From Branchiostoma floridae (taxonomy: Eukaryota > Chordata > Leptocardii > Amphioxiformes > Branchiostomatidae): a stretch of 64,000 nt of DNA. The stretch's first letter is position 1; each line of letters opens with the position of its first letter. The notes below the pieces were generated by a model, which was not told where the DNA came from, made no database searches, and worked only from the letters and a program-made list of their open reading frames with translations. Positions 240-46,800 of the stretch are shown here, piece after piece. The DNA lies in assembly GCF_000003815.2 (NCBI RefSeq), contig NC_049992.1, positions 3,963,769 through 4,027,768 on the forward strand. The letters run 5' to 3'. Made by a program: the position numbers and the translations under genes.

Positions 240-3200
240 ATGATCTGGCTGTGTGTTATCGCCCAGTTGCTGCCGTCTGCCTTGATGAAGCCTGCCACCA
301 TCACAAACAGGATCACACACAGGTTCAGTCCGGTGAACACGTTATTAAATCTGGTGGACTCTTTCACACCCAGGGCAAGTAGGGCTGGAGTAAACAAACA
401 AACAAACAGGATCACGCACAAGTTCAGTCCTGTGAACACGTTATTAAACCTGGTGGATTCCTTCACACCCAGGGCGAGTAGGGCTGCAGTAAACAAACAA
501 ACAAACAAACAAACAGGATCACACACAGGTTCAGTCCAGTGAACACGTTATTAAACCTGGTGGATTCCTTCACACCCAGGGCGAGTAGGGCTGCAGTAAA
601 CAAACAAACAAACAAACAAACAGGATCACACACAGGTTCAGCCCTGTAAACAGGTAATTAAACCTGGTGGACTCCTTCACACCCAGGGCAAGTAGGGCTG
701 TAGTAAACAAACAAACAAATAAACAGGATCACGCACAGGTTCAGCCCTGTAAACACGTTATTAAATCTGGTGGACTCTTTCACACCCAGGGCGAGTAGGG
801 CTGTAGTAAACAAACAAACAAATAAACAAACAAACAGGATCACACACAGGTTCAGCCCAGTAAACACGTTATTAAACCTGGTGGATTCCTTCACACCCAG
901 GGCAAGGAGGGCTGTAGTAAACAAACAAACAAACAAACAAACAAACAGGATCACACACAGGTTCAGCCCAGTGAACACGTTATTAAATCTGGTGGACTCC
1001 TTCACACCCAGGGCAAGTAGGGCTGCAGTAAACAAACAAATAAACAAACATGATCACACACAGGTTCAGCCCAGTAAACACGTTATTAAATCTGGTGGAC
1101 TCTTTCACACCCAGGGCGAGTAGGGCTGTAGTAAACAAACAAACAAACAAATAAACAAACAGGATCACGCACAGGTTCAGTCCAGTAAACACGTTATTAA
1201 ACCTGGTAGACTCTTTCACACCCAGGGCAAGTAGGGCTGCAATAAACAAACAAACAAACAAACAGGATCACACACAGGTTCAGCCCAGTGAACACGTTAT
1301 TAAACCTGGTGGATTCCTTCACACCCAGGGCAAGTAGGGCTGTAGTAAACAAACAAACAAATAAACAAACAAACAGGATCATGCACAGGTTCAGTCCAGT
1401 GAACACGTTATTAAACCTGGTGGACTCCTTCACACCCAGGGCAAGGAGGGCTGTAGTAAACAAACAAACAAATAAACAAACAAACAGGATCATGCACAGG
1501 TTCAGTCCAGTGAACACGTTATTAAACCTGGTGGATTCCTTCACACCCAGGGCAAGTAGGGCTGTAGTAAACAAACAAACAAATAAACAAACAAACAGGA
1601 TCATGCACAGGTTCAGGCCAGTGAACACGTTATTAAACCTGGTGGATTCCTTCCACCCAGGGCAAGTAGGGCTGTAGTAAACAAACAAACAAACAAATAA
1701 ACAAACAGGATCACGCAAGGTTCAGTCCTAGTGTAAACACTTTATTAAACCTGGTGGACTCTTTCACACCCAGGGCAAGTATATAGGGCTGCAGTAAATA
1801 AAGAAACAATCACTAATGCATTTATCTGGCATTGGAGATTTTTCTTCATGCAGATAAGCAAAGTCACTAACTAATAACCCCACATGTCAGTCAATTGCAC
1901 GGAATCCCCAAATCCCAAACCGGCTTCTACTGACTACTCCCATGGATTATGATATCTTACTGCTGTGTGATCATGACAACTCTGTGTGTTGCACTTTGGA
2001 CTAAATTGTTTCTTTCTCACAAAAACGCATGACTGGAAACCAAGAAGCTGGAACACCTGGTAAGATGTCCTGACATCTTGAGTAAGACTTACAGATTACC
2101 TGTAAGAACCAAGGTGAGTCCTAAGGAGAAGAAGTTGCCTGACATCTTGAGTAAGACTCAAAGATTACCTGTAAGGACCAAGGTGAATCCTAAGGAGAAG
2201 AAGTTGCTTGACATCTTGAGTATGACTGAAATATTACCTGTAAGAACCAAGGTGATTCCTAAGGAGAAGAAGTCGCCTGACATCTTGAGTAAGACCTAAA
2301 GATTACCTGTAAGGACCAGGGTGAGTCCTAAGGAGAAGAAGTCGCCTGACATCTTGAGTAACACTTAAAGATTACCTGTAAGAACCAAGGTGAGTCCTAA
2401 GGAGAAGAAGTTGCCTGACATCTTCAGTAAGAATTCAAGATTACCTGTAAGAACCAAGGTGAGTCCTAAGGAGAAGAAGTCACCTGACATCTTGAGTAAG
2501 ACTCAAAGATTACCTGTAAGGACCAAGGTGAGTCCTAAGGAAAAGAAGTCGTCTGACATCTTGAGTAAGACTTAAATCTTAGCTGTAAGGACCAAGGTGA
2601 GTCCTAAGGAGAAGAACTTGCCTGACATCTTGAGTAAGACTTAAATCTTACCTGTAAGGACCAAGGTGAGTCCTAAGGAGAAGAAGTCGTCTAACATCTT
2701 GAGTAAGACTTATAGATTACCTGTAAGGACCAAGGTGAGTTCTAAGGAGAAGAAGTCGCCTGACATCTTCAGTAAGACTTTAACTAAGATTACCTGTAAG
2801 AACCAAGGTGAGTCCTAAGGAGAAGAAGTCACCTAACATCTAGAGTAAGACTTACAGATTACCTGTAAGGACCAAGGTGAGTCCTAAGGAGAAGAAGTCA
2901 CCTAACATCTAGAGTAAGACTTACAGATTACCTGTAAGGACCAGGGTGAGTCCTAAGGAGAAGAAGTTGCCTGACATCTTGAGTAAGACTTAAATCTTAC
3001 CTGTAAGGACCAAGTGTGAGTCCTAAGGAGAAGAAGTCGCCTCACATCTTGAGTAACACTTAAAGATTACCTGTAAGGACCAAGGTGTGTCCTAAGGAGA
3101 AGAAGTCGCCTGACATCTTGAGTGAGACTTACAGATTACCTGTAAGGACCAAGGTGAGTCCTAAGGAGAAGAAGTCGCCTGACATCTTGAGTAAGACTGT

Positions 3201-4859
3201 AAGATTACCTGTAAGGACCAAGGTGAGTCCTAAGGAGAAGAAGTCGCCTGACATCTTGAGTATGACTAAAAGATTACCTGTAAGGACCAAGGTGAGTCCT
3301 AAGGAGAAGAAGTCGGGGTACTCGGCGAGACCAGACACGTGCATCGCCATGTGAGTCCGCGTCCAGTTCTCGATCCTGTTGCCGACCAGGGAGTCAAAAT
3401 TTGCGCTCCAGGCTCGAGCAACACTCGCCGTGCCTGTAGGATTGACATTTTACTTTAAGTCAATTGACAGGTCATTCATAGCAGAATAGCAGATTGACAA
3501 ATGATACTAGAGCAACTGATGATTAACAAGTTGGTTGACAGGTTCTGGTTATAACACAATTTCAGCCAATCATATGACAGTATGCCAATGATTGCCAAGT
3601 TTATGAAGGTTAGTAATTATAACAGAATAGCAGACCGACCAATGATGTGGCAGTATTGTTATACACTTAGACAACTGACACTTAAGTTGATTGACACCCA
3701 GTTCATATGTAATTTACTGTTACAGCACACTGACCGAATTTTGAACAATCATATGACAGTATGCTGATGATTGACAAGTTTATTGACAGGTTATTTATTA
3801 TATCAGAATACCAGACTGATCAATCATTGACAGTATTGTACAGGCAACTGACAAGTTGATTGACACCCAGGTTACAACAGACCAATGACAGGATTGAATT
3901 TCAGCCAATCATATGACAGTATGATGATTATTGACAGGTTATGACAGAATAGCAGGCTGACCAATGATGTGACAGTATGCTGATGATTGACAAGTTGATT
4001 GACAGGTTATAACAGAAGAGCAGACTGACCTATGACATACTCCAGGATCATATTCCAGCCAATGATGAAGGCCCACAGCTCCCCGACCGTCACGTAGCTG
4101 TAGACGTACGCCGAACCACTTTTCGGCACCCTCGCTCCGAACTCGGCATAACACAGGCCTGGGACAGAAGTTTTTTTTGTTTTTTTTTTAAAGACAATTT
4201 TTATAGATTTTCAAAGAAAAGATACACATACAGACACATGCATGGCACGTAAATCAAAAACAGAAAGACACACGAGACAGAAGTTGGTAAGTCTGGTTGC
4301 TTCAGGGTAAGGGTTAGGGTTCAGAGGTTCAATCATGCCTCATAATCAACATGGTGGCTTTTTAAATCTAGAAAATGACTTGTCTTCTAGTACACACAAA
4401 ATGTTCAGAATCACCCCCCCCCCCCCAACATCTTTCTACGTATGAAACTACTTTATGAAGTATCATATAACAAGGACAATTGAAAAATATTGATTGTCAT
4501 ACCTGCAAATGTATATAGCCACATATCAACTCATTCCCTAGTCTAGATTGTGATACCAATGTTTCAAGGTGGAGTTACTGTTATATGAACAAATGCCTGA
4601 CATGCCACCAACCTGCCAGAATTGACGCAATGGCTGCCACAAGGAACGACAACACGATCGACGGACCGGCCGTTTCCCTGGCAACGGTTCCCGTCAGGAC
4701 GTACACTCCCGCCCCGAGCGTGCTCCCGACACCGAGCAGCGTGAGGTCGAGCGTGTTCAGGCATCGTGCCAGCTGAGAGTCTTCCAGCGACGCAGCGTCC
4801 ACATACTTGCGGCGGAGCAAACGCCCGCCGAAGTTCCGCAAACAGCCGGCAACCGTCAT
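240..4859 (-). CDS. SLC7A-family cationic amino-acid transporter (CAT type), N-terminal part
   Basis: Plasma-membrane permease of the SLC7A1-4 (CAT) group, which carries arginine, lysine and ornithine. Four coding exons, in transcript order 4613-4859, 4030-4158, 3278-3433 and 240-384, join in frame to 225 codons; vertebrate members have about 630, so the rest lies beyond the left edge. The start ATG is at 4857-4859, just after an acceptor, so a 5'UTR exon is further right. Family signatures are readable: [19 protein letters not shown] (first membrane helices), [53 protein letters not shown] and [14 protein letters not shown]. Junctions are canonical (CAG/GTTGG, ATAG/GTCAGT, ACAG/GTAATC, CAT/GTACGT); the first three introns are phase 1. 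Intron 3 is filled by two splice-site arrays. Which CAT paralogue this is cannot be told by eye. Confidence 0.93.
312..1803 (-). repeat. Acceptor-type tandem array upstream of SLC7A exon 4 (about 14 copies, about 107 bp unit)
   Basis: Each unit, read on the minus strand, holds a (GTTT)n pyrimidine-rich tract, an AG acceptor, and about 70 bp copied from the 5' end of exon 4 ([26 protein letters not shown]). The unit then runs back into (GTTT)n instead of continuing to [10 protein letters not shown]. Copies sit near 371, 468, 576, 681, 785, 897, 1008, 1110, 1220, 1324, 1437, 1547, 1656 and 1769. Only the copy ending at 384 is attached to the whole exon. The repeat join lies where exon CTGTTTGTG meets intron TTTGTTTG, a short shared sequence. 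Many units keep an open frame, so long ORFs cross the array. Confidence 0.92.
1804..2067. other. Unique spacer between the two SLC7A intron-3 arrays
   Basis: About 260 bp of AT-rich intron sequence that belongs to neither array. It is the only non-repetitive part of SLC7A intron 3. No coding or regulatory signal is seen in it. Confidence 0.7.
2068..3315 (-). repeat. Donor-type tandem array downstream of SLC7A exon 3 (about 18 copies, about 69 bp unit)
   Basis: On the minus strand each unit carries the last 37 bp of exon 3 (residues [11 protein letters not shown]), the 5' splice site ACAG/GTAATC, and about 30 bp of intron. Donor copies are centred near 2101, 2169, 2239, 2309, 2378, 2447, 2516, 2583, 2653, 2721, 2795, 2864, 2932, 3001, 3071, 3139, 3209 and 3278. 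The 3278 copy is the real exon end. Three units (near 2653, 2583 and 3001) differ at the donor: those at 2653 and 3001 read GTAAGAT, closer to consensus than the genuine site, while the one at 2583 has lost the GT. Units close to the exon are open in frame; more distal ones carry a TAA. Confidence 0.92.
3436..4022 (-). repeat. Degenerate tandem repeats in SLC7A intron 2
   Basis: Phrases such as TTGACAGGTTATAACAGAATAGCAGACTGACC and CAATCATATGACAGTATGCTGATGATTGACAAG recur in shortened and diverged form through most of the intron between exons 2 and 3. The copies are too diverged to give a clean period. The last ones run up to the exon 2 donor (ATAG/GTCAGTC) and share the GACTGACC string with it, so this may be an old, decayed donor-side array. 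Confidence 0.6.
4159..4612 (-). other. SLC7A intron 1
   Basis: Intron between coding exons 1 and 2, with acceptor CCCAG at 4159-4163. It contains a poly-T run on the plus strand near 4171-4190 and a run of C near 4416-4428. No other feature is seen. Confidence 0.7.
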
Positions 4860-7917: not shown

Positions 7918-8106
7918 GATTTCCTGCTACGTTGTTCCAATGCCCTTATGAGTTAGTATCGCTCACTGTACTATTTTCCTGACTCATTGGGCAGCCACTG
8001 AAAACACGACTGAGATATACAGAAGAGTACAGTGGGGTCTGCTTTGCTTCTTTAATAAACCTCCAAGCAAATGTGGAGGGCAAAATGCTCCCATTCTGGC
8101 AAAGTC

Positions 8107-8282
8107 TAGTCTCCAAGCAGACCCAACGGTGCCTTAGAAATGGTATCAAAGCTGGCCAGGGACTTAGTATGGCACCAGGTGCCCGTTTGACTCCCTTAGC
8201 CGGCTATCTCCATTTGCCCGGCTATCTCCTTTGGCAGCTTTGATACTATCTCTAAGGCACCGTTGGGTCTGCTTGGAGACTA
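8107..8282. mobile_element. MITE, TCTCCAAGCAGA family, copy 2, with target duplication
   Basis: Long inverted repeats run from TAGTCTCCAAGCAGACCC to GGGTCTGCTTGGAGACTA. Directly outside both ends is the 9-bp duplication GGCAAAGTC (8098-8106 and 8283-8291). This shows insertion of a discrete mobile unit and fixes its ends. Non-coding. Confidence 0.88.
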
Positions 8283-9296: not shown

Positions 9297-9460
9297 TAGT
9301 CTCCAAGCAGACCCTACGGTGCCTTAGAAATAGTATCAAAGCTGGCAAGGCACCGGTGCCCGTTTGACTCCCTTAGCCGGCTATCTCCCTTTGGCCGGCT
9401 ATACTCCTTTGCCAGCTTTGATATTGTTTCCAAGGCACCGTAGGGTCTGCTTGGAGACTA
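9297..9460. mobile_element. MITE, TCTCCAAGCAGA family, copy 3, with target duplication
   Basis: Same termini as copy 2 and nearly the same interior, flanked by the 8-bp direct repeat GAACGCGA (9289-9296 and 9461-9468). The close match to copy 2 suggests both moved fairly recently. Confidence 0.88.
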
Positions 9461-9745
9461 GAACGCGACACTCAAAGAGTTTGCATACTGTAATGATTAA
9501 CTATTATAACCTCGGGGGCAGTGATACTGTACGTCAAGTGTAACAACGAAGACAACAATACTTAACACTACTCTGTACCTGGCGAATATGGAGGATAATA
9601 CCAGGGGAGTTTTGATACCAAAGGGTTTGTTGGAACTCCGGGGAAATGTTAAATGTTAAATGTAAGCGTTGACTGACTCTACTGGCCAGTTAGTCCTTTT
9701 TTTGTATGATCATTACTCCTGTAGGAAGGCCGCGTAGGGACTAAG

Positions 9746-10746: not shown

Positions 10747-13700
10747 ATGTGTTTTGAAAGAACTTTGTATGCATTGTTAGTGTTGTTGCTAGTGTGCCAT
10801 CAAGGCTGGGCACAGGAACAGTGCTTCGCAGACGGAACAGCAGAAGAAGAGGAGGAATGCGACTCCACCTCACCTGGCAGGTCTCACCTGACCCCCCACG
10901 ATGATCCCGAACCTGTACCTGACACAGGTGTACCCACTGAGGAGACAGGTAAATGTCCGTGTAGCACCGTTAGATGTACATGTGAGCTATTAAAATCTAA
11001 CACAATACAAGTTACTCAGGTAGCTGCCATATGGAGAGGTTTTCATTCATGATTATCGTTCATGAAAGTCGGGCTTAAACTAACGTTATATCTTCAAATT
11101 AACAAAACTTCTCAAACCTAAAAGGACGAAAAGGTGCACAGATAACACATACTGTTTTCATGATCAGGAACCTTCGCAGGCGTTCGACATATCCAAATCT
11201 ATCAAAACATAAGTTTATTGACATGAAAAAAATTAAAGGATACATCAATGCAGTCCGCCAAAGTCTGTAGTGTACACAGACATTTCGTAGTCGACTAGTA
11301 TATCGTTCATTGTTAAACGTTAACATGTTGTTTTATGTGTAAACAATAGTAGCCTAAACGCACTCACCTTGTGATAAACGTAGGTCAATCTATTTGTATC
11401 TTCTTGTTTGTTGTAGGTATGCATTATACAGTAGATTAAAGTCACTGTACTTTTGTCTATAAAGATTGTGCGAAACATTGTGTTAGAAAACTAAATCGCA
11501 ACGTGATACCCATACAGGATCAGATGTTACTTTACACAATCTTAAACATTTTTATATGCTGAGCAAGGAGCTTACGTACATTAAGTCTGCACTTCCGTTC
11601 CCAGCCGCTAGAGACTGTGTGGAAGTTTACGAGCGCGGGTCCGTCACCAACGGTGTGTACGTCATCAAGCCGCTCTCGTACCCGGGCGACCCGTTCCCAG
11701 TGTACTGTGACATGGAGAATAAGAACGGCGGTTGGACGACAGTTCAGCGGCGACAGGACGGGACAGTGGGTGACGTCATGCATAGATTATTATGTGACAT
11801 CAACTAGACCACGTAATGACACATTGACGTACATTTCTTCTTGGCGTCTGTATGTCACTAGAAAGGCAACATTTAAGCGAAAATGCAGAATGCTTTCCTT
11901 TTGTCAAGTTACATTGAACACAATATTATACCACTAACGCTAGTTCACCTTTATCCGCGGGGTACCCTTTATCCGTTTAAAAGCAGTGTATTTAGGGATA
12001 TAAAATCGACGGACGATAGTTTCAAATTTCAATACATCCAAAATATTACTGATAAAAACCACCGTCCACGGTCTTGAGTATCCGGATTTCCATTAATATG
12101 CTGTTTAAAAAAATGAATATATGATGCCCCGAGGATAAAGGTAAACAAGTTTTATGATATTGGGCTCGCAAACTGTAAGATCTGCTTGTAGATTACTAGT
12201 ACCACTTATGACCCGCGCTGAAGTGTATAGGTGTCATAAAGCATGATCGGTTCCTATAACCATCAAATAAACCACCGAGTGAGCGACTTCAGCAAATCCG
12301 TTCCTGAGGGCTTTTAACCGGACCTGGTAGGAATGCACATTTGTGGCGCTCGTGCCTCTTTCTGAGACATAAAAGGAAAAAAAGTGACGTAACCTTACAT
12401 GTAGGAAACCCCGAAAACTACCTGAAGATCAAACTGAACATTAGCCACAACCCTGCTTGGAGATTTTTTTAAATTCTGATGGACAAATTTTCCAGGTGAA
12501 TTTAATATTATTTTAACCGAACTTGGGAGGAGTGCACATTTGTGGCCCTCGGCATATTGTGGCTCTTTCTGAGTAACAAACGAATTGAAAAAGTACGAAA
12601 CCCCGAAAAATACTAGAATATCAAGCTTCATATTAGCCGCAACCCTGCTTAAATTGAGATTAGTAATTCTGATTGGCAAATTTCCAGGTGGATTTCAACC
12701 GGACCTGGGAGGAGTACCAGCTTGGGTTCGGTGACCTTGAGGGTGAGTTCTGGCTGGGACTGGACAAGCTGCACGCGCTGACCAGCGTAGGGAAGTACAT
12801 CCTGCACCTGGACTTCACTGACTGGGAGGGGGGCCGCGCCTTCACGGAGTACAGCAGCTTCAGAGTGGGAGGGGAGAAGGAGGACTACACCTTACACCTG
12901 TCGGGGTACTTCACAGGTAGCACAGGTGGGGACGCCATGTTGCGTCCCGTGTCGCTGAGCGGCAAGAAGTTCTCTACGCGCGACAGGTGAGCTCTACGGT
13001 CACCTTTTAGGTCTACGTCACCTTTAATCTTTAGTCTTCAAGCAGATCCTACGGTAACAATAAGATAGTATAGAGGCTTCAGTCCTCTGCCAGCTTTTGA
13101 TACTATCTTATGGTACCGTTGGATATGCTGGGAGATTACGTCAAATTTCCAAAGCGGGGCCCGGCCGGACAGCTTTTGGGAACAGAAAGTAGGATACGAA
13201 AGTCGCCAAACTACACAAGACGTAAATAGAATAGTCGTGGGCATCATCTGTGTGTATCTGTACGCATATATTTCTATTTTCACTTCCACAGACAGCCCGG
13301 CCGGGCCCCGGTTTGGAAATGTGACGTTTTTAATGAGCCTTAGTATCGTAGTAGTACGACGGGTGCCCGTCACAGGTGATGCAGTGTACCATCCTGCTAA
13401 AACAAATAAAGTGAAAGTGAATGTGAAAGTATGGTGGTGTCAGAGGTGGTGGCGGCTGGTGGTACTACACGTAATGTTGGTATTGTTGGTAATGTTGGTA
13501 TTGTTGGTAATGTTGGTACCTTTGATACTGTGGTGCCGATGGTACTGATAACTGTTCCCTTCCCTCCAGGGATAATGACGAGTGCGGCTGTAACTGTGCG
13601 TAGAAGTTCGGAGGTGGCGGCTAGTGGTACTGTAGCATTGATGGTACTACGGTACGGTGGTACCAGTGATAATGTGTGGTACTGTTTTTTTCATAGTACA

Positions 13701-16393: not shown

Positions 16394-16585
16394 TCGAAAA
16401 CCGGGGAGCGAGTCTCCGTGCGCCTCGCTTCCCGCGGACGAAACACAGAATGAGAGCCCCGGTGTGGTGTGCGGAAGTGTGAAGAGGCAAGGACTGACAC
16501 GCGGTGACCACGTGGGAGGTCAGACAAAGACCGGAGACGGGGTTGTCGTAAATTAATAAAAATGACATCACTGACATTTTTCCAC
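16394..16585 (-). repeat. A2 split direct repeat of the Ngaro-like element
   Basis: 192 bp, matching 21241-21432 (A1) at every position I compared. It lies directly next to B1, which together with A1 and B2 defines the element type. Confidence 0.9.
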
Positions 16586-31800: not shown

Positions 31801-34800
31801 TAATTTGTAGGTTCATTATATCTGGGAAATTCCCCAAGGTCTTTTCCACTAACAGTAACACGATGAAGAGTGGACCACGGCTTAACATCCCGTCCTAAGG
31901 ACTGTAACACAGTCCAGTACTTAGCGTGCATGTTGGGTGAGTGACACAGCCGGAAACTCACAGTCACAGCTTCTACTTTTTCTAGCTAGTTCCAGAGACA
32001 GTGCCACTAACCACTAGACTAGGCTTGTCACCCCCAGTCTAGTTCCACAGCAGCAGGGATGTGTGAGCTATATAGTCATGGTTCATGTTGATGTTGTGAA
32101 AACATTGCACTGCACACAGCTGGCCGACCTCTGACCCCACAGACTAATTGGGGTGTCAGCTGCTGACCTCTGACCTCCTTGAGTGATGAGGATGACAGCC
32201 CCTGCCCTATCAGGTTTCAGTCACACCCCTTCCTGAGATGGGACTGAACTTGGTGTTGTTGACCTGCTGGTTTCTGTTGTTGTTGGGCATCAATTTTAGC
32301 CTGGTATCCAGCCGTAATATAGCGCTTGAGTCTCTTCTCTCCTCTTCGTAACTCTGCTGTCCAGGGCTGTAAATGGTCACTTCCCACAGAGGGGGCCGGC
32401 AGATGTTGGGTGGGCTGCAGCTGCTATAAGCAAGATTTGATCAGGCTAATTAGTGACTAGTTAGTGACCAGATCAGGCTTAGAAGACTAAGGTGGTTCGG
32501 ACATGTAGTAAGAAGACCACCAAACACATTAGTCCGCAAAGCATTCTATTGCGAATTGCGAAGAGGAGAGAAGAGACTCTGGAGTGGAGCTATATTACGG
32601 CTGGATACCAGGCTACATCAAATTACCCTGTGCTAGTTCTGGCTACTTGGTTCTTGGAACACTCAACAGCATAAAATGTGTCCCACCAAAATGTTACTTA
32701 TTCCCATAAGCTCACGTCTAGTTAAGTCTCTGATGTGTACTCTCCAAAGAGAAGTTTGGCTCCAGCTTTGTTTTTATGTGTTTTGGCATTTTATTAGGCT
32801 TCCTATAGTATTATCATAGTTCTGGTTTCAGCTTGAAGAGTACTTCATGTAAGCCTATCAGACCACATGTGTAGCTTCATGAGTCATGACACCCACTTCC
32901 AGGTTTTGGGACAGAAGCACAAAGCAGGAAATACATTAGCAACATGCAGCATGTCCTGTTACCAGTGACACAGTCCTACGTAATAGACTCAACTGTATTG
33001 ACATGGATAATTTTAGGCTTGCAAGAGATGAAGCGAAGCAATGAACAAACATGATTTTGCTCTTTAAAAATTTTTTTTTGTCTTCGACAGACCCCAGAGT
33101 GGGTCGATGATCCTCTACAACAGGAAGAAGGTGAAGTACAGAAAAGACGGCTACAGCTGGAAAAAACGCAAGGATGGCAAAACTACCAGAGAAGATCACA
33201 TGAAGCTCAAAGTACAGGGTGTAGAGGTAAGGTAGCCGAGGTAACAGACTTGGGGCATTCTGGTATTCAAATTGTAACATACGTCAATCTGGTATCCATG
33301 GCAACAGATCAGACTTACATCATTTTGGTATCCATGGGAACAGACTAATGTCTTATATTATTCTGGTATTTATGGACACGGACAATTTTTCTTGTATAAA
33401 ATATAGTAAGAGGTATACTTTTATTAGACATTTTGGTATCCATGGTAATGAACCCATATCACTACTGTAGATATGATATTCTGATATCCTTGACTATAGA
33501 TACATATGATTTTGGAACAGTATCTTATAGTATGGTAACAGACACCAACTCTGAAGAGGTAGCTTCTTTCTGTTATAAGATTGGGGGTCGTTTAGTGTAT
33601 GCATACAATGTACCGTACCATCATCAGGTTCATAAACATCTATGTATATTGACTACTGTTATTTCTCCATGTGTGTGCCTGTATGTCTGTTATGTGAATT
33701 CCTCAGTCATACACAGGTATACAGGTACAAATGTACACAGGTGTTTGTGTAGGTTGTACACATGTATCTCCCCCCACAGTGCCTGTATGGCTCAATGGCT
33801 ATAATGTACATTCCTCTATCATTGTACAGGTACATGTACAGGTGTATACAGGACCAAGTATACAGGTATACAGGTACGGGTGTATGCATATGATGACTGT
33901 TGTTGTTATATCCCCTCCACAGTGCCTGTATGGCTGCTATGTGCATTCCTCTATCGTGCCAACATTCCACAGAAGATGCTACTGGTTGTTGCAGGTATGT
34001 TTGCTCTGTTTCTACACACTGTACATTTACTAATGAGTTCATACCTCTTGTGTTTGTTGTGTAGATCCAGTTAAAGTGTTGGTATACTACCTGAGGCCAC
34101 ACAAATTTATTTTCTTGGTTGGTTCAAACATTTTAGAATAAAGATGAAAATAGAAGGTTGAAATGAAAGATTGCATCTGAGTCTTCATACATGTCACCAC
34201 ACTCCCTGAAACTGTGTATACCAAGGTACAGCCCTCAGTTTTTTTTTAAACCAGCGATGCAACAAATAAAATTGTTTTACCCTGATCATGTTTTAATGTT
34301 TGCTTGTTTGTGTAGAACCCAGATAATGTGTTGGTACACTACCTGAATGCTTGTTTTTTTGTTTGTTTATTTAGAACCCAGATATCGTGTTGTTACACTG
34401 CCTGATAATTTGTTTGTTTATTTCTGTTGTTTGTTTGTTTGCTTGTTTAGAACCCAGATATCGTGTTGGTACATATCTGACCATGTGTTTGTTTGTTTGT
34501 TTGTTTGCTTGATTAGAACCCAGATATCGTGTTGGTACACTACCTGAATGTGCCGACTACTGAGGACTCCAAACCCTCCATCCCCCCAACCATTCCCCTC
34601 CGCATCGACTCACAAGAATGGACAAAGGACGAACTCCTCAAGCAGCTCAAGCCCATGTGTGAGTTATCAAGTGTTCTTTAAAACTATCCACCAAAGATGC
34701 CCCGACTGTGCTTGGTGATAACAAATTCCACTCTACGATACATTTGTAGTTCTGGGAAAGTACTACATGTAGTTAAACAATAAACCTGCCATATATGATA

Positions 34801-37800
34801 ATGCGAGTTCATTCAAGATAGACTACTTAAAATTTGGTTCTAATGTGTTGGTTGTATGAGTCCAAACAGATTCAGAAGTGAGATAAAGAAGATTATATGA
34901 TGATGGAACAGCTTTTGTGACAGTTTATTTTGTTGAAAAAAAAACAACAGTTTTCTAGATAAATGACTTATTCCTGTGTTGATGTTAAAATTTTGTATTT
35001 TTGCTCTTCAGTTGCAGGAGTCAAGGTCGGAAGTAACAACGACGTGGTGAGTACATATTATGGGCTATGTTGCATATTATGGGCTATGTTGCATATTATG
35101 GGCTATGTCACATATTATGGGCTATGTTGCACATTATGGGCTATCATATTACTGGGCTATGTCATCAAAATTGCAGTGAGGGCTAAATCCTGTGCATTAT
35201 GGACTTCATTGCATATCATAATTGCAGTTATATCACATACATTAGGGGGTATATCACAAGACAGTATGGGCTATGTCATATGCATTATGAGTCATGATAT
35301 AACTTATGTTTGTGAAAGTTCAGTTCCCACATGTACAATGTACTTTCTGCATGTGAAAGTCAGTTAGGCTGCAAGAGGGGTCAAAGTATAAGTTATGATT
35401 TCAAAGGGTTTGAAAAATCTGAATAGTTCATCTTACCAAAGGTTGTTATTGTTGAGGCTTAGTGTGTATTTATTTGTTTTGCACACTCACATCCGTTTTG
35501 GGGTTTCCAGAGGATGTCATCCATACAAATTACAATAAAATCAGCTTGACCTTAGTGTATTTATTTGTTTCCCCCGTCCAGAGCGAGACGATTGAGGCAG
35601 TTGTGGAGAAGCTACTGGACAACAAGGCGCCCAAACCCCAGCCTAAGACAGTCACGCACGCCTGCGTCTGTGCTAAGGATGGGGCCGGACCCAAGCAGAA
35701 GTGTGGTCACACTCCCCACCGAATCATCTCGCCCAAGGTCGAGAGTACGCGTTCCGAGATAGACAGTCCTGCGGGCATGGGCGCCGACGTGGTGACCCCC
35801 GACCTCCCGCCGCCCCAGCCCACCGCGCCGACCGTGGTGAACATGATCGGGAAAGTTCCCAACGGACTTGCGACGCGGAATGGCGCGGTGGTTAGCCTGA
35901 ACGGCCTGGCGGGCCCGGGTACAGGCGGCGTTCAGAACGGGATGTTCTCTAGCGGCATCGCGGTGACGGGGATTAGCACGAGTGGTTCGATAGTCAGCGC
36001 AAATCTCTTGTGTGGAGTTCCCGTGCTGCCTGGGTATGCTACAGAGGACCAGCTTTCTACATCCGTCGTCGCCGCCCCCCTCCCCACTGGGATGGTTTCG
36101 ATGGTCCCCCAGTCTTCGCACAACGTCGCCATTTCCACCACGGATGGAGGCAGCGCCATGGTGTTCCAGCACGCGACCGCCACGCAGCCGAACAGCGTCC
36201 CCATGGTTCTAAATGGCATCGCGTCGTCAGCACAGGGTTGGTCCGTGAAGGTTGAAAACGAACTTCCGCCCGCTAGCGCCGCGGCAAACTCGCACAGCCC
36301 AAGCATGAACCACGCCATCAACACAAGATTTCTCTCGTCGCAAGGCTCGTTCGACCTCCCACCATCATCCATGCTGACCATCTACGAGTCCAACGCGCTG
36401 GCGGGCCAGGCTCTTGTCGGCCATGCTCTACCGGGCCAGACGATGGCCGACGCGGCCCCCGTGAGTCGCTACAGTCTGAACCTGGACACGATCCACGGGG
36501 AGGGTCACGCCATGACGGCCCCATCCACCCCCAGTAGGGCGCCGCGCAGCTTCACTGGCGGGGGATACAGCCGCAAGATGGCGCTCGACGCCAAGGGCTT
36601 CGTCAAGCGCAGCAAGAGCCTGGACGAGCAGGTTCTCCAGACGGGTAACCATGGTAACCACGCCCCTCCGAACGGGTTTGTCCTCGAGGGGGCAGGCGTG
36701 GCTCAGGGGGGAGACCGGCAGCTACTCTTTGCTCAGGACATGACAAGTGCAATAGGGGGGGAGGCGGTAGGGGGGTTGAACACTGGCAGTTTCGGAGAAG
36801 GGCTAAACCATCCCTACCCCCCTCCCGACTACAAGACCGCGGTGGCGATGAATGCAGCAGGGACCCGCGACGCCATAGGGTCTCCCACTGTAGTTTCGAG
36901 CGGAGGGGACGGTCAGCTGACCTCACCCCTGAGTGAGACCAACGAGTTTGGTTGTCGTGACATCCTCCTCAGCGGCAGTAGCGTGATCCCGACGGGTCTG
37001 TCGCACGCAAACGGACACCTCTCGCCCCCGCAGAACCTGACCCTTAACCTCAGCTCACTCTCCTCCAACCAGGCGCTCGACAACCTGGACCTGAACACCC
37101 CCACCTCCGACGTGGACCTGTCCAATTTCGACGCGTTCGATAACATCATGTTGGACACACAGCTGTCGGACCTGCTGCCGGAGCTGGAGAACACGGATTC
37201 CAACGACCGTAGCGTCGACCACGGCAACGACCCTTCCGAGAACGGAACGTACGGGCGCTGCGAGAGGTCGGCCCAGAGAAACGAGCTGGTCTGCATCACG
37301 GACTTCTCACCCGAATGGTCGTACCCCGAGGTTTGTTTGTTTCATTTGTTCAGATCTTTACCTTGCATCTGGTACACCTGCCTTAGAAGTTGACCTACCC
37401 AAAGTCACAAGACAGTCAATGACATATACTGAGTCTCCTATTAACTTTGGACATGCACCTACCCGGAACGCAACATTAGAACATAACCTATATCCAAAAT
37501 GCAAAGGACACATATTATAACTAGTATCAAAACATGCAACTTGGACACTTTTTTGCTCTGGGTTGATTAAGATTTTAAATGTGATTTTCTCCTTGATTCT
37601 CAGCCTTAGGGTCTTTGGGTTAAACCATGTCACACTGTAAATTGTAAATTTAACCCCAAGCTATTATCGAGCTTTTATACGATACGGTGTTTTAAAGCTT
37701 AAAGCTCAATATTTGTACACTAACGTTTTAAGCAGTAAGGGAACTTTGATGCTGTCAGTTACCATACAAGCCTTTATGCGTCGCTGTGTTCTTGATCGCC

Positions 37801-40800
37801 GTATCTAAAATAACTACGGTGCACCTTTCGGATTCGATGCCCGGTACGTCCCGATAGCGTACTTACCCACGGGTGAATGTACAGTACAGTTGGACAAAAG
37901 CACTCACACAGATCTTTCTTAAAAAGGTATGAGCTACACAGATCTTTCTTTAAAAAGTATGAGGCTATATACGTTTTAGCATTCGTTAACTTTATAATGA
38001 TATACTATATATTAGATTTTTTTTTTTTAAATTCTGTAACAACTAAATTTGAACTTTCTTACAACGAAATTTCCTCCCATATTAAAGTAGACTGTCCCAT
38101 TGACCGCCGCCATCTTTATTCTAAACATAACATCGTAATGGCAGTCAAAATCCGACGCAAACTGGCCGATTTCGGCACAAAATCGCGCTAGTTATCATCA
38201 AAAATCGATGAAAACCTCAATGTTGAAAATGATGCGGTCGTTATGGGTCCGAATTTAGGCCGGTCGCGGTCGCGTTGGCCAGGTGGTCGTTGAGAAAAGG
38301 TCGCTTAATGCTTACGTCAATGGGAAAAAAAATCGGGACCGAGAAAAAGCGGTCGAAATGGCCAGGTGGTCGCTGAGAAGAGGTGGTCGCTTGGGCAGGT
38401 TTGACTGTATAATTTTCAGGGTTGCTTGGGTTAAACCATTGTCTATTTGCAGGGAGGAGTGAAGATCCTGGTGACAGGCCCGTGGCACTCCAGCACCACG
38501 GTGTACAGCTGTGTGTTTGGGTTGAACCATGTATATTTGCAGGGGGTTTGGTTTAAACCATTATGTATTTGCAGGGGGGAGTGAAGATCCTGGTGACAGG
38601 CCCGTGGCACTCCAGCACCACGGCTGTGTGTTTGGGTTAAACCATGTATATTTGCAGGGGTGTTTGTATTAAACCATTATATATTTGCAGGGAGGAGTGA
38701 AGATCCTGGTGACAGGCCCATGGCACTCCAGCACCACGGCTGTGTGTTTGGGTTAAACCATGTATATTTGCAGGGGTGTTTGGATTAAACCATTATATAT
38801 TTGCAGGGAGGAGTGAAGATCCTGGTGACAGGCCCGTGGCACTCCAGCACCACGGCATACAGCTGTGTGTTTGGGTTAAACCATTATATATTTGCAGGGG
38901 TGTTTGGGTTAAACCATTATATATTTGCAGGGGGGAGTGAAGATCCTGGTGACAGGCCCGTGGCACTCCAGCACCACAGCGTACAGCTGTGTGTTTGATG
39001 ACATCAGCGTCCCTGCCAGCCTGGTGCAGAGTGGGGTCCTCAGATGTTACTGTCCAGGTCAGCACAAAAATGTTGTTTATTTTAGTTGGATCTATATTAG
39101 TATAACAGTGGGGTCTAGGGGTGGCTACCGGTAAAACTGTTTGCTTTTCATGTTGGAGCAGTCTGAGGAAACCAAACTTGTTCAAAATCAGTGGAACGGA
39201 TTTCGGATCAATTAGAAAATGAACAGATTATATCAGCAGGCAGTCCTACGTTTGGGGGCTTATAGTCTGTGTAACACAAACTCCGCTGTCCAGGGCTGTA
39301 ACTGGCCCCTCCCCGGCGGATGTTTGGCGGGCTGCTATAAGCGAGATTTAATCAGGCTAGGGGGCTTAGTGGTGCAATAAAATAACAAGTATCAGTGTTT
39401 GGTAACTGTGGGGTGTTTCCCCAGAGCCCAGAGGTCATGCTACTGATCCTTTACCCTGGGAAAAGGCACTTAATAGGACTTTCCTCACTCCACCTAGGTG
39501 TAAAAATGGGTACTATAAGTAGTATAACAATGACATGACATTGTTTAATTCTATGCAGCCCATGAGACTGGCCTGGTGACCCTTCAGGTCGCGGCGGGCG
39601 GGGTGCCCATCTCCAAGTCTGTCGTGTTTGAGTACCGGACGCGCAGCGTTCTACAGAGCGCCGGCTCACAGCGAGAGTGGCTCTCCCTGGACGGTTTGTT
39701 TACACACACCTATTTCTTTGTCAGTCAAAATTTCAGATTTTTGCAATAATGCTGGACATGAAAATAACTCTGAGGAGGAACTCTATAACTTTGTCACTTA
39801 TAGAATTCATGCTACCGGAAAGGAATGCAGGATGTTAAGCTATGGTTCACTGTTCATTGTACTTGTGGAAAAGAGCCAACATGTGTAATATGCCAAAGTG
39901 GGTTTACAATGGCTATACAGATACAGATACAGGGGAATTAGCCTGCCTTCTCTGTCCCAACCAGTGGAAGAGAACACTTTCTTTAAGAAGGTTTGAGATG
40001 ACTTTCACTGTTTATTTCAGAGCGCCAGTTTAAGATCTCCATCCTGGAGAGATTGGAGCAGCTGGAGAACCGGCTGGGTACCAGGAGGGGGGCGGGGCAA
40101 CAGGACAGCTCTGGACAGGTGAGCATGTGTCTCTCTTGAAGGCTTGTCTTTCTTCTTCTCAGTACCTTCTAGGGTGGTATGGGATCACTCTAGGAATGTT
40201 GCATTGCAAAGTTTTGTTGACTTAGAGAATTTAAGGACAATCTTCTGTCTCTTTATATAACTGTTGATGATAATGATAATATGTCTTTGGTGGGGTGCTG
40301 CATAGTACATATACATGAAAATGTTTATAAGATTATATGCAGTATAGTTATCCACTGTAATGAGGAATTCAAGTATTACTAAGTGAAGTAATGGCAAATG
40401 GATCGACAGGGCCTGTCAATAGTGTCATTGACATGTTGGCAAAGCTAATGTTTTTTTGATTGATTGATTGATTAACAGGCTTCTTGCCATTCCTGGAGCA
40501 TTGACCCGTTGATGTGTGTCAATTTAAGTCAGATGTCATGAATTGATTGGTTGAATGATTTGTTGAATGATTGATTGATTGATTGATTGACAGGGATCTG
40601 GCCAGGGTACCCAGCATTCCCTGGAGGACCGTCTGATCGCGGTGTGCTCCCAGCTGATGACTCGCACCTGGATCAAGCCGGAGGCTGCACTTCCCACCTG
40701 CTCCGCTAGGGGGATGACTCTGCTGCACCTGGCAGCCGCACTGGGCTACAGAAGACTGGCCGAGAAGCTCATGGTCTGGAGGTGAGTAGGGGTGTATTTG

Positions 40801-43800
40801 GTTGTACTTGTACTTTCTGTAGGGCTTTATGGAAAAAAAAATGTACCAAAGCAAACACTGAAATGGTTGGGACTCCATCAGCCTCCTTCGTAGAGTAGAT
40901 CTGCCTACTGCAGCTTCATTGTTTATTCCATGAACAAGGCTGACAGAGTCCCAACTTGTTTAGTGTTCCAGGTTACTAGGTAAGTTATACTTTGTTCAAT
41001 GAAACATGAACATTAACCCAGTGAACACAGATAAACTTTCTTGCTAAGCTGTAGGGCTTTACTTAACCTAACCATACATTTTACTTTAGAGCTATGTATC
41101 ACTGCCTGTGCAGCACATTGCTGTTCTAATATTTTCCTTGTCATCACTGCAGGAGCCAGAGTTCCAGTGTGGTCCTGGAGGTGGAGGTGGACCCACTCAA
41201 TGTTGACCACTTCAACTGCACACCACTGGTAAGGGCATAGGTCATAGTGCAACTGCACACCACTGGTAAGGGCATAGGTCATAGTGCAACTGCACACCAC
41301 TGGTAAGGGCATAGGTCATAGTGCAACTGCACACCACTGGTAAGGGCATAGGTCATAGTGCAACTGCACACCACTGGTAAGGGCATAGGTCATAGTTCCA
41401 CTGCACACCACTGGTAAGGGCAAAGGTCATAGTGCAACTGCACACCACAGGTAAGGGCAAAGGTCATTATTCAACTGCACACCACTGGTAATAAGGGCAT
41501 AGGTTATAGTTGAACTGCACACCACTGGGAAGGGCATAGGTCATTATTGTTTAACTGCACACAGCTGGTAAAGACATAGATCATAGCTCAACTAAGCACC
41601 ACTAGTCATAAGTCAAGGTTTACTAGTGCACAGCCAATAGGATTATAGTTTATAGATTATTGTGCAACTGTACACCAGTTGGTGAGAGACATTCTCTCCC
41701 TTTGACGTCACAAACTGTAATTGTAGATGGTAATTCTGGTTAAATAGTTGGAAATACAGCACTAGCATGTGTGTTCCCTTGGTCTAAGATGTTTAGGACT
41801 ACAACTTGCTAGCCGCCATGCTAGATAGAAACGCTTGGTCAGACATTGTTAATGGCACCTCATATGAGGATGAACTGAACTGACAATTTTTAACAGTCTA
41901 TCCTGTTGCTCTGCAGATGTGGGCCTGTGCCATGGGCCACACCGACACAGCGTACTTCCTGTGCCAGTGGAACCGCGCCGCCCTGACCGTCCCGGACTCC
42001 CTGGGCCGCCTCCCCGCGTCCTTGGCCCGGGCCCGCGGCCACCCCCGCATCGCAGAGGAGCTGGAACTGACCCAACAGGAAGGTCACCTCCCGAGCTTCA
42101 AGCCTCCGCCCGTCCACGCCTCTCCGTTCTCGCCCAGGGGCCTCTCGCTGCCGCTGGGCGCTGGACTCCGGCTGTCCCCGCTTGACCCCGAACACTCTCC
42201 GTCATCCGCCTGCTCCACCCTCAGCTCAGCCTCCCCCAACTCCAGCAACCTCTCACCCAACCAGGAGGCAGCGCAGCGCAAGAGCGCCCCCAGGCTCTCT
42301 CAGGAGGAACTGCACCTCCTTCTGCAGAGGTCCATCTCCCGGATGAACCCCAACATCTTGAACTCCAGCACAAACGTCTTAAACCCCGGCAGCAACGTCT
42401 TAAACTCTAGCACCAATGTCTTAAACCCTAGCAGTAGCATCTTAAACCCTAGCAGCAGCATCTTAAATCCTGGAACCAGCCTCTTAGACCCCAGCCTGGT
42501 GAAGATGGAGACAGAAGAGGCCATGCACACGGATCAGCCGACCTTGTCAGACACCCTGCGAGCCAGGAACCTGCGACAGGCACAAGCCACTGGTAAGGAC
42601 ATAGTTCAACTGTACACCACTAGTAAGGTTATAGGTCATAGTTCAACTGTACACCACTAGTAAGTGCGTAGGTTCAACTGTGCACTACTAAATAAGGGCA
42701 TTGTTCACAAGTCAACTGTACACCAGGACTGATAAGGGCATACTTTTACTAGATTTACAGGGCTGGTAATAGTGAATACATAATCATATATGTTACCTAT
42801 TCTGAATGTTATACTTTAGCATTACCAGTACTGCATGATATGTATCGTTTGAGACCCTTCTGTAAACCGGACCCCAATGTCCACAAGGCCCTTTTTTTCT
42901 GAATGAAATTGGATCCAACTGTTACTTAGATAAATCATGGATTATTGACCTGTACTTGGCTTGTTTGAGCATAGACTAAAAGCGAATTAAAGGTCTTTTG
43001 TTGATAAAACCCTCTTAAAACAGAGGCCATGCAGTACAGTGATGGTGGGTACGATAAAGATTTGGACTCAGCGGAGCTCCCACCATCTCCCCAACACGAC
43101 TCCATCCTATTGCTGGCCGAGCGGATTGTGTCGGCACTCCCGCCTCGATTCGTGGACGATCAGGAGATGTCTGATGAAGACTACTCCTTCCTGGACCACA
43201 CCTACCGAGACGTGACCACGCCAGGTGAGAATCACCTGTAACACACCTGTACAGTGTATACTCACCTGCATACATACATACCTGTACACTCACCTGTAGT
43301 TAGTAATGATCAGGAGATGTCTGATGAAGACTACTCCTTCCTGGACCACACCTACCGAGACGTGACCAGGCCAGGTGAGAATCACTTTTAACACACCTGT
43401 ACAGTGTATACTCACCTGCATACATACGTACCTGTACACTCATCTGTAGTTAGTAATGATCAGGAGATGTCTGATGAGGACTACTCCTTCCTGGACCACA
43501 CCTACCGAAACGTGACCACGCCAGGTGAGAATCACGTGTAACACCTGTACAGCTTACCTGTACAGTATATACTCACCTGCATACATCCATGTACCTGTGC
43601 ACACACCTGTAGCTTGTAAGTTAGCTTGAATTGTCTGTAGTTTGTGGTGCACAGTCAGAAGTTCTTTTGTGGAGTTTTTGTGCACCTCTGTAGTCTGTAG
43701 TTGATGTATAGTTTGTATTGCCTCTTTTTATTTTTAATAATTACACCTTGGTCTCTGGTTTCTAGTGCATTAACTTATATGCATGACAAAATTTAATGTA

Positions 43801-46800
43801 GTTTGTGTTACACCTCTGTATTATGTAATGTACCTCAGACAGTACATGTGTATGTTATGTACCTCAGTCTGCAGTATGTAATGTAAGTTTGCAGTACATG
43901 TATGTAATGTACCTCTGCAGTTTGTAGTGCACTTCTGTATTTTGTAATCTCTAATGCATTTCTAGTTTTTAAAGCACCTGAGAGTCTGTAGTTCGTAATA
44001 TCTGGTGTAAGAGAAAACCAAGAATTTTTTACTCTCCCCCCAGGATCAGTGGACAGTCCCGTTGACCTGGACAGCCCGGATGACCTGCTGGAAGACTTTG
44101 CCATTGACCCCCACGACCCCCCGCCGACCCGGGAGGAGTGGTGCGAGTTCCTGAACGCCTCCGGGCGGGTGACAGAGGAACTGCAGAGCCTCACACTCAC
44201 AGGTAAGGAACCATACAGAACGCCTCCAGGCGGGTGACAGAGGAACTGCAGAGCCTCACACTCACAGGTAAGGAACCATACAGAACGCCTCCAGGCGGGT
44301 GACAGAGGAACTGCAGAGCCTCACCCCCAGCTTTGCAGTTTCTGTTTTCGGTAACATTTTTTTCTAATGCTGAGCTTACAAAACTTTCGACATTGTTTCT
44401 CTATTTATTATTCTTCTGTTATCATGTTATCTGAATATTTAGGAGGTATTCCTTTGACTGGTACATATTGGATAGGGTTAATTTGCCTGAGACAATTTGC
44501 AGTTTCTGCCACACTCATTGCTCCACTACATTTACAGTGGTGTTGCCTCAATGTGCAGCCATTAAACAACATTTTTTACTCAATGTTCCTGTAACCATGG
44601 TGATGTGTTCCCCTGCAGACCAGGAACAGAAGAAGCTGTACCAAGCAGCGGCCGTCATACAGAACGCCTTCCGCCAGTACAAGGTGCATCTAACTTTCAC
44701 TTACATCTGTTACTGTTACATTAATGTCTTAAAGTTAGTGTCATACAGATTATCTTCAGTAAGCCAGGTCAGTCTTCACTTTCATCTCCAATGCCCTATG
44801 TCTTAGTGTCACTAGTACTGTGAACGTCTTCTGCCAGCGTATACATGTATACTGCAAGAAAAATGTTCTATATTCTTTTGAATAACAGTACTTTATTCAC
44901 AAATACATGTTTTTCAAGAGCCAACAGCTTGATGATCATCTGTCATCTCCTTCAGGGCAAAAACGACTGGTTCACTGCAGCCAGGTGTCATTGCTAGCAT
45001 TGAAGTCTCAAAGTTTAACATAAAGTACTGTAACAGTTACAAAACTGCGTACTATATTCTTAAGCAACCTTTATTATCCTATATTGACTTACGATGTTTC
45101 ATGTTTGGAACAGACTGTGACCTGGAAATGTCTCTGGCTGCTTTGTTTGTGTTAACTCTACAATTTTGTTAATACTTTACATTACTTAACTGTTTGTTGT
45201 TTTGTTTCCTGCAGAGTCGCCGGCAGCGTCGGCTGCGTGAGATCGAGGCTGCGATACTGATCCAGAACTACTACAGACGAGTGAGACAAACTTACTTAGT
45301 AATACTAACTAACAAAAAGTAACAAACTTTCTACAGTGTAAGTAACCAAGAAAGTACAGATGCAAGAGACCAACTTACATTGCCAAGTTCTACTATTTTT
45401 TTTCTATATACAGATCTAGAAGAACAGTTTTTTTCATTCATTTTTAGACCTCAGATTTTTTTTAATATAAAAATAGATAAGGCTCTAGTTTCTTACATGA
45501 TGTTCGAAAGCAACTGCAGACATTCTTTGGATAGACGTGCATGTTTCTTGCAAAATTCATTACCCTCCCTATGAAAAAATGCTGTCTTATCCTTGTTGGC
45601 TGTTGGTTCAGTCATAGCTTGCTTGGAAATTCTACAACTCAAATCAAAATTGTATGATAAGCTACGATAAATGTGACTGCAAGCATTGTAATTGAAGTTT
45701 CCCTTCCCAGTATGCCATGTTCAAGAAGATGAATAGGGCGGCCATCTTGATCCAGAGCCGGTTCCGACGCTACTACGAGCAGAAGAGGTTCCGCCAGCTG
45801 TACCGCGCCGCTGTACTCATCCAGAGCTACTTCCGATCCTTTCGCGAACACGAGAGATTCCGGCAGTACCGGCGCGCCGCCATCATTATACAGAAACGGT
45901 TCAGGTGGGTGTTTGGTATAGGTGTCTTGGTTTGTAACTGTGTGTAGTAGCAGTAGTCCACTGTGTCCCTCTATAGTTACACTGTGTGTAACTGTGTACT
46001 ATTTGCATGTATGTGAGACTGTGTGACTGTGTGCATGAGTGTGTGTGTATTAGTGTGAATGCATGTGTGTGTGTGCGTATATTTGTACACGTGTTTGCAT
46101 GCGTGTATGTACATTTGTATGTGTGTGAGTGTGTTTCTCTGCATCTTTGCCATGCATTTGTGTGTCTCTGTGTGTGTGCATGCATGTGAAGGTGAGTTAT
46201 TTGGATGTATCTTTGTTGCAGCTTATGTTAAGAGAAACTGTAACAGTTGTAGTTTGTATTGATAGTACATCAATATTTGTATTGATAGTCTATAGCTGGC
46301 CGAGTAGTATAGGCTTATTTTTGACTTTTGCCATTCTCTGACCTTCATGTCCCCACAGAGGTCACTGCCAACGGAAGAGGCGTCTTCAGGAGATCATGCA
46401 GCAGTACAGACAGAGGTGAGCATCTTAAAGGAACTATTCACAATGTCTTAGATGGACAGTTTACAGTCTTGTAACTCCTATAGTACAGACAGTGTACAAA
46501 TAGTGTCTCAAAAATCCCTTCACAGTATTAAAACGGTTCAGACAAACTTAAAGAAAGTTACTGTAGGAATTTAAAAAAAGGATTGTACAGACAGAACCAG
46601 AACGGGAAAGACTCACACCTTTGTGACACCTACAGAGTACACCTGAAGTCTAACACTGTTTTTTATTGGTTTGACTCTCAGACAGCAAACTGACAGCAGT
46701 AGTAGTCATTTGGTTCACATTTTTCTTATTGTAAACTTTACCCTACAATACATTCAACTTAAAAAAGACCTCATGTGTGTTACTGGTAACAGACTTAATA

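What the first reader, a model, noticed from the sequence alone, without database searches (positions are those of the whole stretch)
240..44330. Recurrent tandem arrays anchored on exon-intron junctions in four unrelated genes
At least twelve tandem arrays in SLC7A, FReD, lectin and CAMTA have units that contain a splice site plus the adjoining exon edge. Acceptor arrays copy intron end plus exon start; donor arrays copy exon end plus intron start. The genuine site is always the copy joined to the rest of the exon, so arrays grow into introns. Joints often lie in short sequences shared by exon and intron (for example GTGTTTG, CAACTGCAC, TTTGT). Unit lengths (38 to about 190 bp) and sequences differ, so a process and not a repeat family is shared. 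Inference: duplication through microhomology or slippage that is tolerated only when the exon stays complete, creating pools of decoy splice sites. I recall boundary minisatellites at the amphioxus Adh gene, so part of this may be known.
Basis: partly seen in the sequence, partly recalled or inferred. Interest (0 to 1): 0.9.

Follow-up and report, generated by a model that had tools for sequence, protein, structure and literature searches.

The report
Tandem repeats copying amphioxus exon edges
Stretches of DNA that span the border between a gene's coding part and an intron have been copied many times in a row into the intron, a known peculiarity of amphioxus, and here the copies still show that they descend from, or passed through, the working border.

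Summary
Nine tandem arrays in three genes (CAT-type SLC7A, FReD, CAMTA) copy a splice site with its exon edge; a tenth CAMTA site is an old two-copy duplication. The lectin array only abuts its donor. The copy joined to the rest of the exon is the real site: proteins spliced from these copies align with CAMTA1 and CAT1 chains without inserted repeats. The kind is known: "mirages" in amphioxus Adh3, globin, troponin C and PGBD5 genes (passages). Three points go further. (1) In 15 dynein gene pieces chosen by homology, 6 of 10 strong arrays cross a mapped exon edge (1.6 expected, P 0.001; 5 of 10, P 0.01 by raw TRF coordinates). (2) 81 of 95 scored decoy sites are as strong as the real one, so position must decide; the exon-proximal site is the real one, as exon definition predicts. 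(3) Exon-part variants shared by some but not all decoys are synonymous in 24 of 29 cases (8.7 expected; frame-shifted controls 4 and 3); in long arrays, variants private to one decoy look neutral (5 of 18). Copies seem to spread from or through the functional edge, then decay. RNA, haplotypes and other species could not be examined.

The parts
240..384 (-). Exon of a CAT-type (SLC7A) transporter whose acceptor edge is copied
   Evidence: Colinear with CAT1 (9fqt) across this junction; AA_permease_2; junction string check
281..1781 (-). Acceptor array, ~111 bp unit = intron end + first ~84 nt of the exon, 14 copies; the genuine copy is at the low-coordinate end
   Evidence: TRF, lag scan, copy alignment
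2034..3344 (-). Donor array, 69 bp unit = last ~38 nt of the exon + intron start, 18 copies; genuine donor edge at 3278
3278..3433 (-). SLC7A-like exon owning the copied donor
13550..14100 (+). FReD acceptor array, 4 copies of about 132 bp; genuine acceptor at 14037
   Evidence: Fibrinogen_C positions 3-219 of 221 across the junction
23562..23903 (+). 42-bp array in the SUEL-lectin intron; abuts the donor at 23554 but carries no exon edge
   Evidence: SUEL_Lectin
33770..33994 (+). CAMTA: diverged two-copy duplication of an acceptor and exon start; genuine exon 33923-33994
34297..34556 (+). CAMTA acceptor array, 59-76 bp spacing, 4 copies plus an older copy at 34067; genuine acceptor at 34517
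   Evidence: CG-1 domain continuous across the junction
38406..39000 (+). CAMTA acceptor array, 116 bp unit, 5 copies (with 32-bp sub-repeats); genuine acceptor at 38931
   Evidence: colinear with the CAMTA1 chain 2cxk
41209..41593 (+). CAMTA donor array, 37 bp unit, 10 copies; genuine donor after 41228
42584..42728 (+). CAMTA donor array at the next exon (donor after 42592) built of the 37-bp unit of the previous exon's donor
   Evidence: 87% identity over 156 aligned bases, gaps not counted, to the 41229 unit
43140..43552 (+). CAMTA donor array, 150 bp unit, about 2.6 copies; genuine donor after 43224
44145..44324 (+). CAMTA donor array, 65 bp unit, about 2.6 copies; genuine donor after 44202
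35053..35164 (+). 19/57-bp array lying just past a CAMTA donor (35046); no exon edge copied

Best explanation
These are 'mirage' minisatellites of amphioxus: short tandem duplications that span a splice junction and then expand inside the intron. Steps. (1) A segment covering the junction (37-164 bp in the 17 arrays measured) is duplicated locally (shown as anatomy; the physical event, slippage, unequal exchange or template switching, is inferred). (2) The extra copies are harmless because the spliceosome pairs splice sites across the exon: at donors it uses the 5'-most site and at acceptors the 3'-most, that is the exon-proximal one, although most decoys are equally strong (motif strength and position shown; choice in RNA inferred). 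(3) The functional edge takes part in the copying as a source or as a filter: exon-part variants that have spread among copies are mostly synonymous, while single decoys in long arrays decay without visible constraint (shown statistically; the exchange route is inferred). The result is an intron that carries diverged versions of its neighbouring exon edge.
For: Anatomy. Genuine copy by homology. 64 dynein introns were mapped, 56 of them with less than one residue of surplus or deficit against the domain model. Enrichment in a homology-chosen sample: by TRF coordinates 5 of 10 strong arrays cross a mapped edge, 1.62 expected, P=0.010. L082 is a sixth, counted after reading its sequence because TRF set its start 2 nt past the donor: P=0.0012. 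Counting L080 too, whose donor was not among the 128 mapped edges: 7 of 10, P=9.6e-5. Seven of 128 mapped dynein edges carry copies (L074 acceptor 3620; L077 donors 982 and 2029 and acceptor 3807; L078 donor 398 and acceptor 1760; L082 donor 1422). Decoy strength: 81 of 95 scored decoys at least as strong as the genuine site, 8 of 95 more than 3 bits weaker. Variants shared by some but not all decoys: 24 of 29 synonymous, P=6e-9; frame-shifted controls 4 and 3 of 29; without SLC7A-acc 14 of 18; arrays whose unit is not a multiple of three 10 of 12; loci outside the window alone 9 of 11. Variants private to one decoy in arrays with 7 or more decoys: 5 of 18 synonymous, 5.8 expected; against shared ones Fisher P=0.0007. 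Published Adh3 data and globin RT-PCR suggest regular splicing (passages).
Against: No RNA was available, so site choice is inferred from protein colinearity. In the 17 arrays a simple outward conveyor is not supported: gradient P=0.015 for whole units, 0.055 and 0.068 for the parts; carriers of shared variants 16 farther, 13 nearer. In arrays with 2-4 decoys even private variants are synonymous in excess (26 of 42, 12.0 expected), which fits young copies differing through changes in the genuine copy but does not isolate the decoys. Without SLC7A-acc the long arrays give only 11 private (2 synonymous) and 9 shared (7 synonymous) variants. Exon and intron parts do not differ consistently: pooled divergence 233/4749 against 212/2771, but number of distinct variants per base P=0.11 and the sign varies between arrays. 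The independent enrichment sample is one gene family, 10 arrays, 3 of the crossing ones in one gene (L077).
Confidence: 0.75

Rival explanations
1. Decoy-only amplification: a junction-spanning duplication arises once, and afterwards only intronic copies multiply, independent of the exon.
For: High copy numbers in introns (18 copies at SLC7A-don, 15 at L077b); private variants in long arrays look unconstrained, 5 of 18 synonymous; a variant spacer recurs at intervals in L077b, a sign of copying among decoys.
Against: Variants that spread among decoys would then be about 30% synonymous; 24 of 29 are.
Confidence: 0.12
2. The decoys are used: alternative or repeat-extended exons under protein selection.
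For: Synonymous excess; in SLC7A-acc, SLC7A-don and L080 the unit is a multiple of three and has no in-frame stop on use of the adjacent decoy.
Against: Unit length is not a multiple of three in 10 of 17 arrays and use of the adjacent decoy gives an in-frame stop in 13 of 17; the excess persists in the arrays whose unit would shift the frame (10 of 12); private variants in long arrays look neutral.
Confidence: 0.07
3. Chance: amphioxus introns are full of tandem repeats and some must touch exons; the reader's eye picked them.
For: Exons are dense, so a 146-bp unit has a 27-35% chance of covering an edge in the dynein genes; intron-interior arrays exist (L073, L079, and CA-rich L078).
Against: Observed 5 or 6 of 10 against 1.62 expected in loci chosen without regard to arrays, and 7 of 24 against 1.24 in the window.
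Confidence: 0.04
4. Assembly artefact: collapsed or falsely expanded haplotypes at junctions.
For: The window holds one 100-base run of N; published work found copy numbers differing between assemblies (PGBD5: 7 against 2 repeats) and one misassembled mirage (BflGb6 file legend).
Against: Many decoys differ from the genuine copy by several percent; the PGBD5 case was re-examined with Sanger and Illumina data and BflGb6 was rebuilt from traces (passages); a 158-bp globin array matching the published BflGb6 unit length is recovered.
Confidence: 0.05

Closest known systems
Amphioxus 'mirage' minisatellites (Adh3, globins BflGb6 and BflGb9, troponin C, PGBD5)
   Same: Tandem units that span an exon-intron boundary, donor or acceptor; unit 10-72 bp (Adh3) to 150-160 bp (globin); decoy AG/GT signals in many but not all copies; regular splicing reported (passages read; the 2002 Adh paper itself is not held)
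   Different: New loci (CAT-type SLC7A, FReD, CAMTA, several dyneins, a kinase, an ABCB-type transporter) and three quantities that I did not find in print: enrichment against a unit-sized placement null, decoy strength, and the codon signature of shared variants
Intron gain by tandem duplication of AGGT-bearing exon sequence (Rogers model, cited in passages; potato RdRp case seen in a search listing)
   Same: Tandem duplication creates extra splice signals
   Different: Here existing introns are lengthened; no new intron is shown
Human internal tandem repeats at exon-intron boundaries of segmental-duplication genes (PMC2812944, passages)
   Same: Minisatellite expansion at gene boundaries; units about 30 bp on average
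   Different: There half of the variable repeats are in coding sequence and boundary cases may make new introns with alternative transcripts; here the protein appears unchanged
Ordinary minisatellites / VNTRs (from general knowledge)
   Same: Tandem units, partial copies, mosaic variants
   Different: Preference for splice junctions and passage through coding constraint

Membership tests
[quoted passage not shown]
   Nine arrays in the window; eight edges in dynein loci L074, L077, L078, L080, L082; globin L017; kinase L047; ABCB-type L059
Amphioxus mirage minisatellite | Decoys carry AG/GT signals (many but not all) | tested here: met
   93 of 103 decoys (where two arrays had the junction set one base off; with the right junction these two give 5 of 6 instead of 1 of 6)
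Amphioxus mirage minisatellite | mRNA spliced at the authentic, exon-joined site | tested here: inconclusive
   Supported only through protein colinearity; no RNA data
Amphioxus mirage minisatellite | Length polymorphism between haplotypes and somatic instability | not testable with these tools
   For the one array searched, one locus in the assembly
Amphioxus mirage minisatellite | Published positive control rediscovered by the same method | tested here: met
   Globin locus L017: 158-bp unit, 4.2 copies, crossing the exon start; published BflGb6 150-160 bp. That L017 is BflGb6 itself is inferred from unit length
Dispersed repeat family / mobile element | Related copies elsewhere in the genome | tested here: not met
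   For one array only (38380-39060): no second array among 40 listed matches; 39 are to bases 1-44. Other arrays not searched
Intron gain by tandem duplication | A new intron inside a formerly continuous exon | not tested
   Age of these intron positions was not examined

The most novel reading that the evidence does not exclude
In amphioxus the functional exon edge acts as a master copy that keeps seeding, or homogenising through itself, intronic copies at several percent of all exon edges (7 of 128 in the dynein sample; extrapolated to the genome this would be thousands). This makes introns a record of synonymous states of their own exons, and makes a large natural set of arrays of equally strong splice sites in which only exon proximity tells the real one: a genome-scale natural experiment on exon definition.
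Probability: 0.5. Interest if true: 0.72.

Novelty: new member of a known kind. Interest (0 to 1): 0.56.

Why it matters
The phenomenon has been reported gene by gene since about 2002, and the globin paper already suspected that it is general in cephalochordates (passage). If several percent of exon edges carry such arrays, they are a sizeable source of intron length and of splice-site decoys in this lineage. They allow a direct test of how a spliceosome picks one of up to 18 nearly equal sites, and of a route from duplication to new introns. The codon signature offers a way to see exchange between working and non-working copies.

Tried and rejected
Kinase domain loci were a poor sample: most of the best hits lie in long open frames, so intron edges are few. 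In the first 68 loci, 11 arrays reached TRF 130 with period 20 or more: 3 lie inside open frames (L019, L035, L036); of the other 8, three cross an exon edge (L017 and L047 by their Pfam match; L059, five near-identical copies of an exon start, whose genuine exon is colinear with ABCB1; Pfam gave no hit for that short exon), L033 was read and shows no evident exon (by eye only), and L028, L049, L066 and L067 were not resolved. A serial outward conveyor was tested and not supported by the order of shared variants. A consistent excess of conservation of the exon part was tested and not found. The length of array modulo unit as a measure of microhomology was dropped because distal copies are partial and decayed. 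Four junction duplications were left out of the 17-array variant tests: CAMTA 42593 (wrong exon's edge), CAMTA 33923 and L078 acceptor 1760 (two copies), L059 (found later). In one search two dynein exon pairs could not be joined, and one joined pair (L074, acceptor 3620) lacks a small exon in between; dynein regions outside L069-L083 were not fetched. Exon coordinates for the window test were set by hand from strings read in the sequence (reused).

Literature: the searches listed no genome-wide test of mirages; most subscription papers are not held, so this is not proof of absence.
Full report
What is there. The window lies on contig 14 of a 513.4-Mb, 431-contig assembly. Four genes matter: a CAT-type SLC7A transporter on the minus strand (AA_permease_2; best PDB match CAT1), a fibrinogen-related gene (Fibrinogen_C 3-219 of 221), a SUEL lectin, and CAMTA (CG-1 and TIG domains). 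I mapped 62 exon edges by splice strings.

The arrays. Nine arrays copy a splice site with its exon edge: SLC7A acceptor and donor, FReD acceptor, CAMTA acceptors 34517 and 38931, CAMTA donors 41228, 42592, 43224 and 44202. CAMTA acceptor 33923 has an old two-copy duplication. The lectin array and the array at 35053 only lie next to a donor. Taking every TRF array with period 15 or more in 240-50230, except two coding ones, 7 of 24 cross an edge against 1.24 expected, P=4.7e-5 (it misses FReD and CAMTA 42592, which TRF does not place over the edge). The null collapses each array to one unit and drops it at random on the sequence, entirely exonic positions excluded.

Which copy is real. Proteins spliced from the exon-joined copies align without inserted repeats with CAMTA1 (2cxk, query 3-84, no gap, E 3.6e-40) and, across both SLC7A arrays, with CAT1 (9fqt, query 1-189, E 1.2e-76; a single one-residue gap lies a few residues upstream of the copied donor stretch). 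The CG-1 and Fibrinogen_C models also run through their junctions. For the four CAMTA donors no such alignment was made.

Independent sample. To avoid the discovery window I used dynein heavy-chain genes found with the AAA_6 model, fetched 15 pieces and mapped 64 introns (128 edges) by homology, frame and splice motif, 56 of 64 with less than one residue of surplus or deficit. Ten strong arrays (TRF 150 or more, period 25 or more) lie there. Five cross a mapped edge by TRF coordinates (1.62 expected, P=0.010). A sixth, L082, is also a mirage: its exon end occurs five times, and TRF set its start 2 nt past the donor; P=0.0012. A seventh, L080, crosses a donor at the end of the mapped part; P=9.6e-5. 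With a two-copy case in L078, 7 of 128 mapped edges carry copies. In the window it is 10 of 62 (the nine arrays and 33923), so the window is richer than the sample. A globin locus with a 158-bp array, matching the published BflGb6 unit, served as positive control. A kinase array and an ABCB-type transporter array are further cases among the first 68 loci.

Decoys are as good as the real site. By simple weight matrices 81 of 95 scored decoys equal or exceed the genuine site and 8 are more than 3 bits weaker. Donor arrays have the exon-joined site as the 5'-most copy and acceptor arrays as the 3'-most, in each case the one nearest the exon. This is the pattern of exon definition; mapped introns average about 550 bases (35,141 bases in 64 introns). 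Without RNA this stays an inference, with published Adh3 and globin RT-PCR results pointing the same way (passages).

The codon signature. In 17 arrays (8 in the window, 9 outside) I compared decoys with the genuine exon edge. All distinct differences: codon positions 24, 13 and 69, 68 of 106 synonymous, 31.3 expected (two junctions were one base off there and corrected). Part of this is trivial, since changes in the genuine copy must be tolerated. The informative class is variants carried by at least two but not all decoys: 24 of 29 synonymous, 8.7 expected, P=6e-9; shifted frames give 4 and 3 of 29. It holds without SLC7A-acc (14 of 18), where decoy use would shift the frame (10 of 12), and outside the window alone (9 of 11). 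In arrays with 7 or more decoys, private variants look neutral (5 of 18 synonymous, 5.8 expected) and differ from shared ones (17 of 20; Fisher P=0.0007). So variants that spread have passed the coding filter of the working edge, while single decoys decay. In 10 of 17 arrays the unit is not a multiple of three, and in 13 of 17 use of the adjacent decoy brings an in-frame stop, so translation of decoys is not the general reason.

Against. The order of copies does not show a clean outward conveyor: divergence rises with distance only weakly (P=0.015 for whole units, 0.055 exon part, 0.068 intron part) and shared variants are scattered (16 farther, 13 nearer). SLC7A-acc looks like a mosaic, which suits exchange among copies including the genuine one. 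In arrays with 2-4 decoys private variants are synonymous in excess too (26 of 42, 12.0 expected). Exon and intron parts do not differ consistently in number of variants (P=0.11). Three of the crossing dynein arrays sit in one gene. Microhomology is visible in SLC7A and CAMTA 38931 but was not tested as a rule.

A puzzle. The array behind CAMTA donor 42592 is made of the 37-bp unit of the previous exon's donor (87% identity over 156 aligned bases, gaps not counted). The two exons share CCACTG|GTAAGG at their donors. The decoys thus carry the wrong exon's edge, on the far side of a 676-base exon.

Known or new. Tandem copies of amphioxus exon-intron boundaries are published as 'mirages' in Adh3, globins, troponin C and PGBD5 (passages in PMC3087553 and PMC3902484; the 2002 Adh paper is not held). 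The arrays here are new members. I found no genome-sample enrichment test, decoy-strength count or codon test, which cover open-licence papers only and of which I read listings and passages.

Noticed in passing
window 42584-42728: CAMTA donor array made of the 37-bp unit of the previous exon's donor array (41209-41593); the decoys carry the wrong exon's edge.
   Followed up: partly
window 16394-21432: Two identical 192-base direct repeats 4847 bases apart flank a long stretch that looks like a tyrosine-recombinase-type (DIRS/Ngaro-like) retroelement; a recalled resemblance, not searched.
   Followed up: no
window 42350-42495: 21-bp tandem repeat (7 copies) inside a CAMTA exon, in frame, so a coding repeat.
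   Followed up: no
window 38380-38415: The bases left of the CAMTA acceptor array match 39 other listed places in the genome over 31-44 bases: probably the end of a dispersed element.
   Followed up: no
window 57120-58423: Long tandem array of 84-, 171- and 255-bp periods that looks like a C2H2 zinc-finger coding repeat; not searched.
   Followed up: no
L078 1593-1918 (reverse-complement orientation): Two-copy acceptor duplication in a dynein gene that TRF missed but the AAA_6 model saw as two overlapping-range matches.
   Followed up: partly
L059 257-830 (minus strand): Five near-identical copies of an ABCB-type transporter exon start, spacing about 131-140 bases.
   Followed up: partly
window 8100-8290, 9300-9465, 13030-13140, 53470-53620: Hairpin-like elements sharing a 'ctccaagcaga...' end when read by eye, possibly one family of small inverted-repeat elements.
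   Followed up: no
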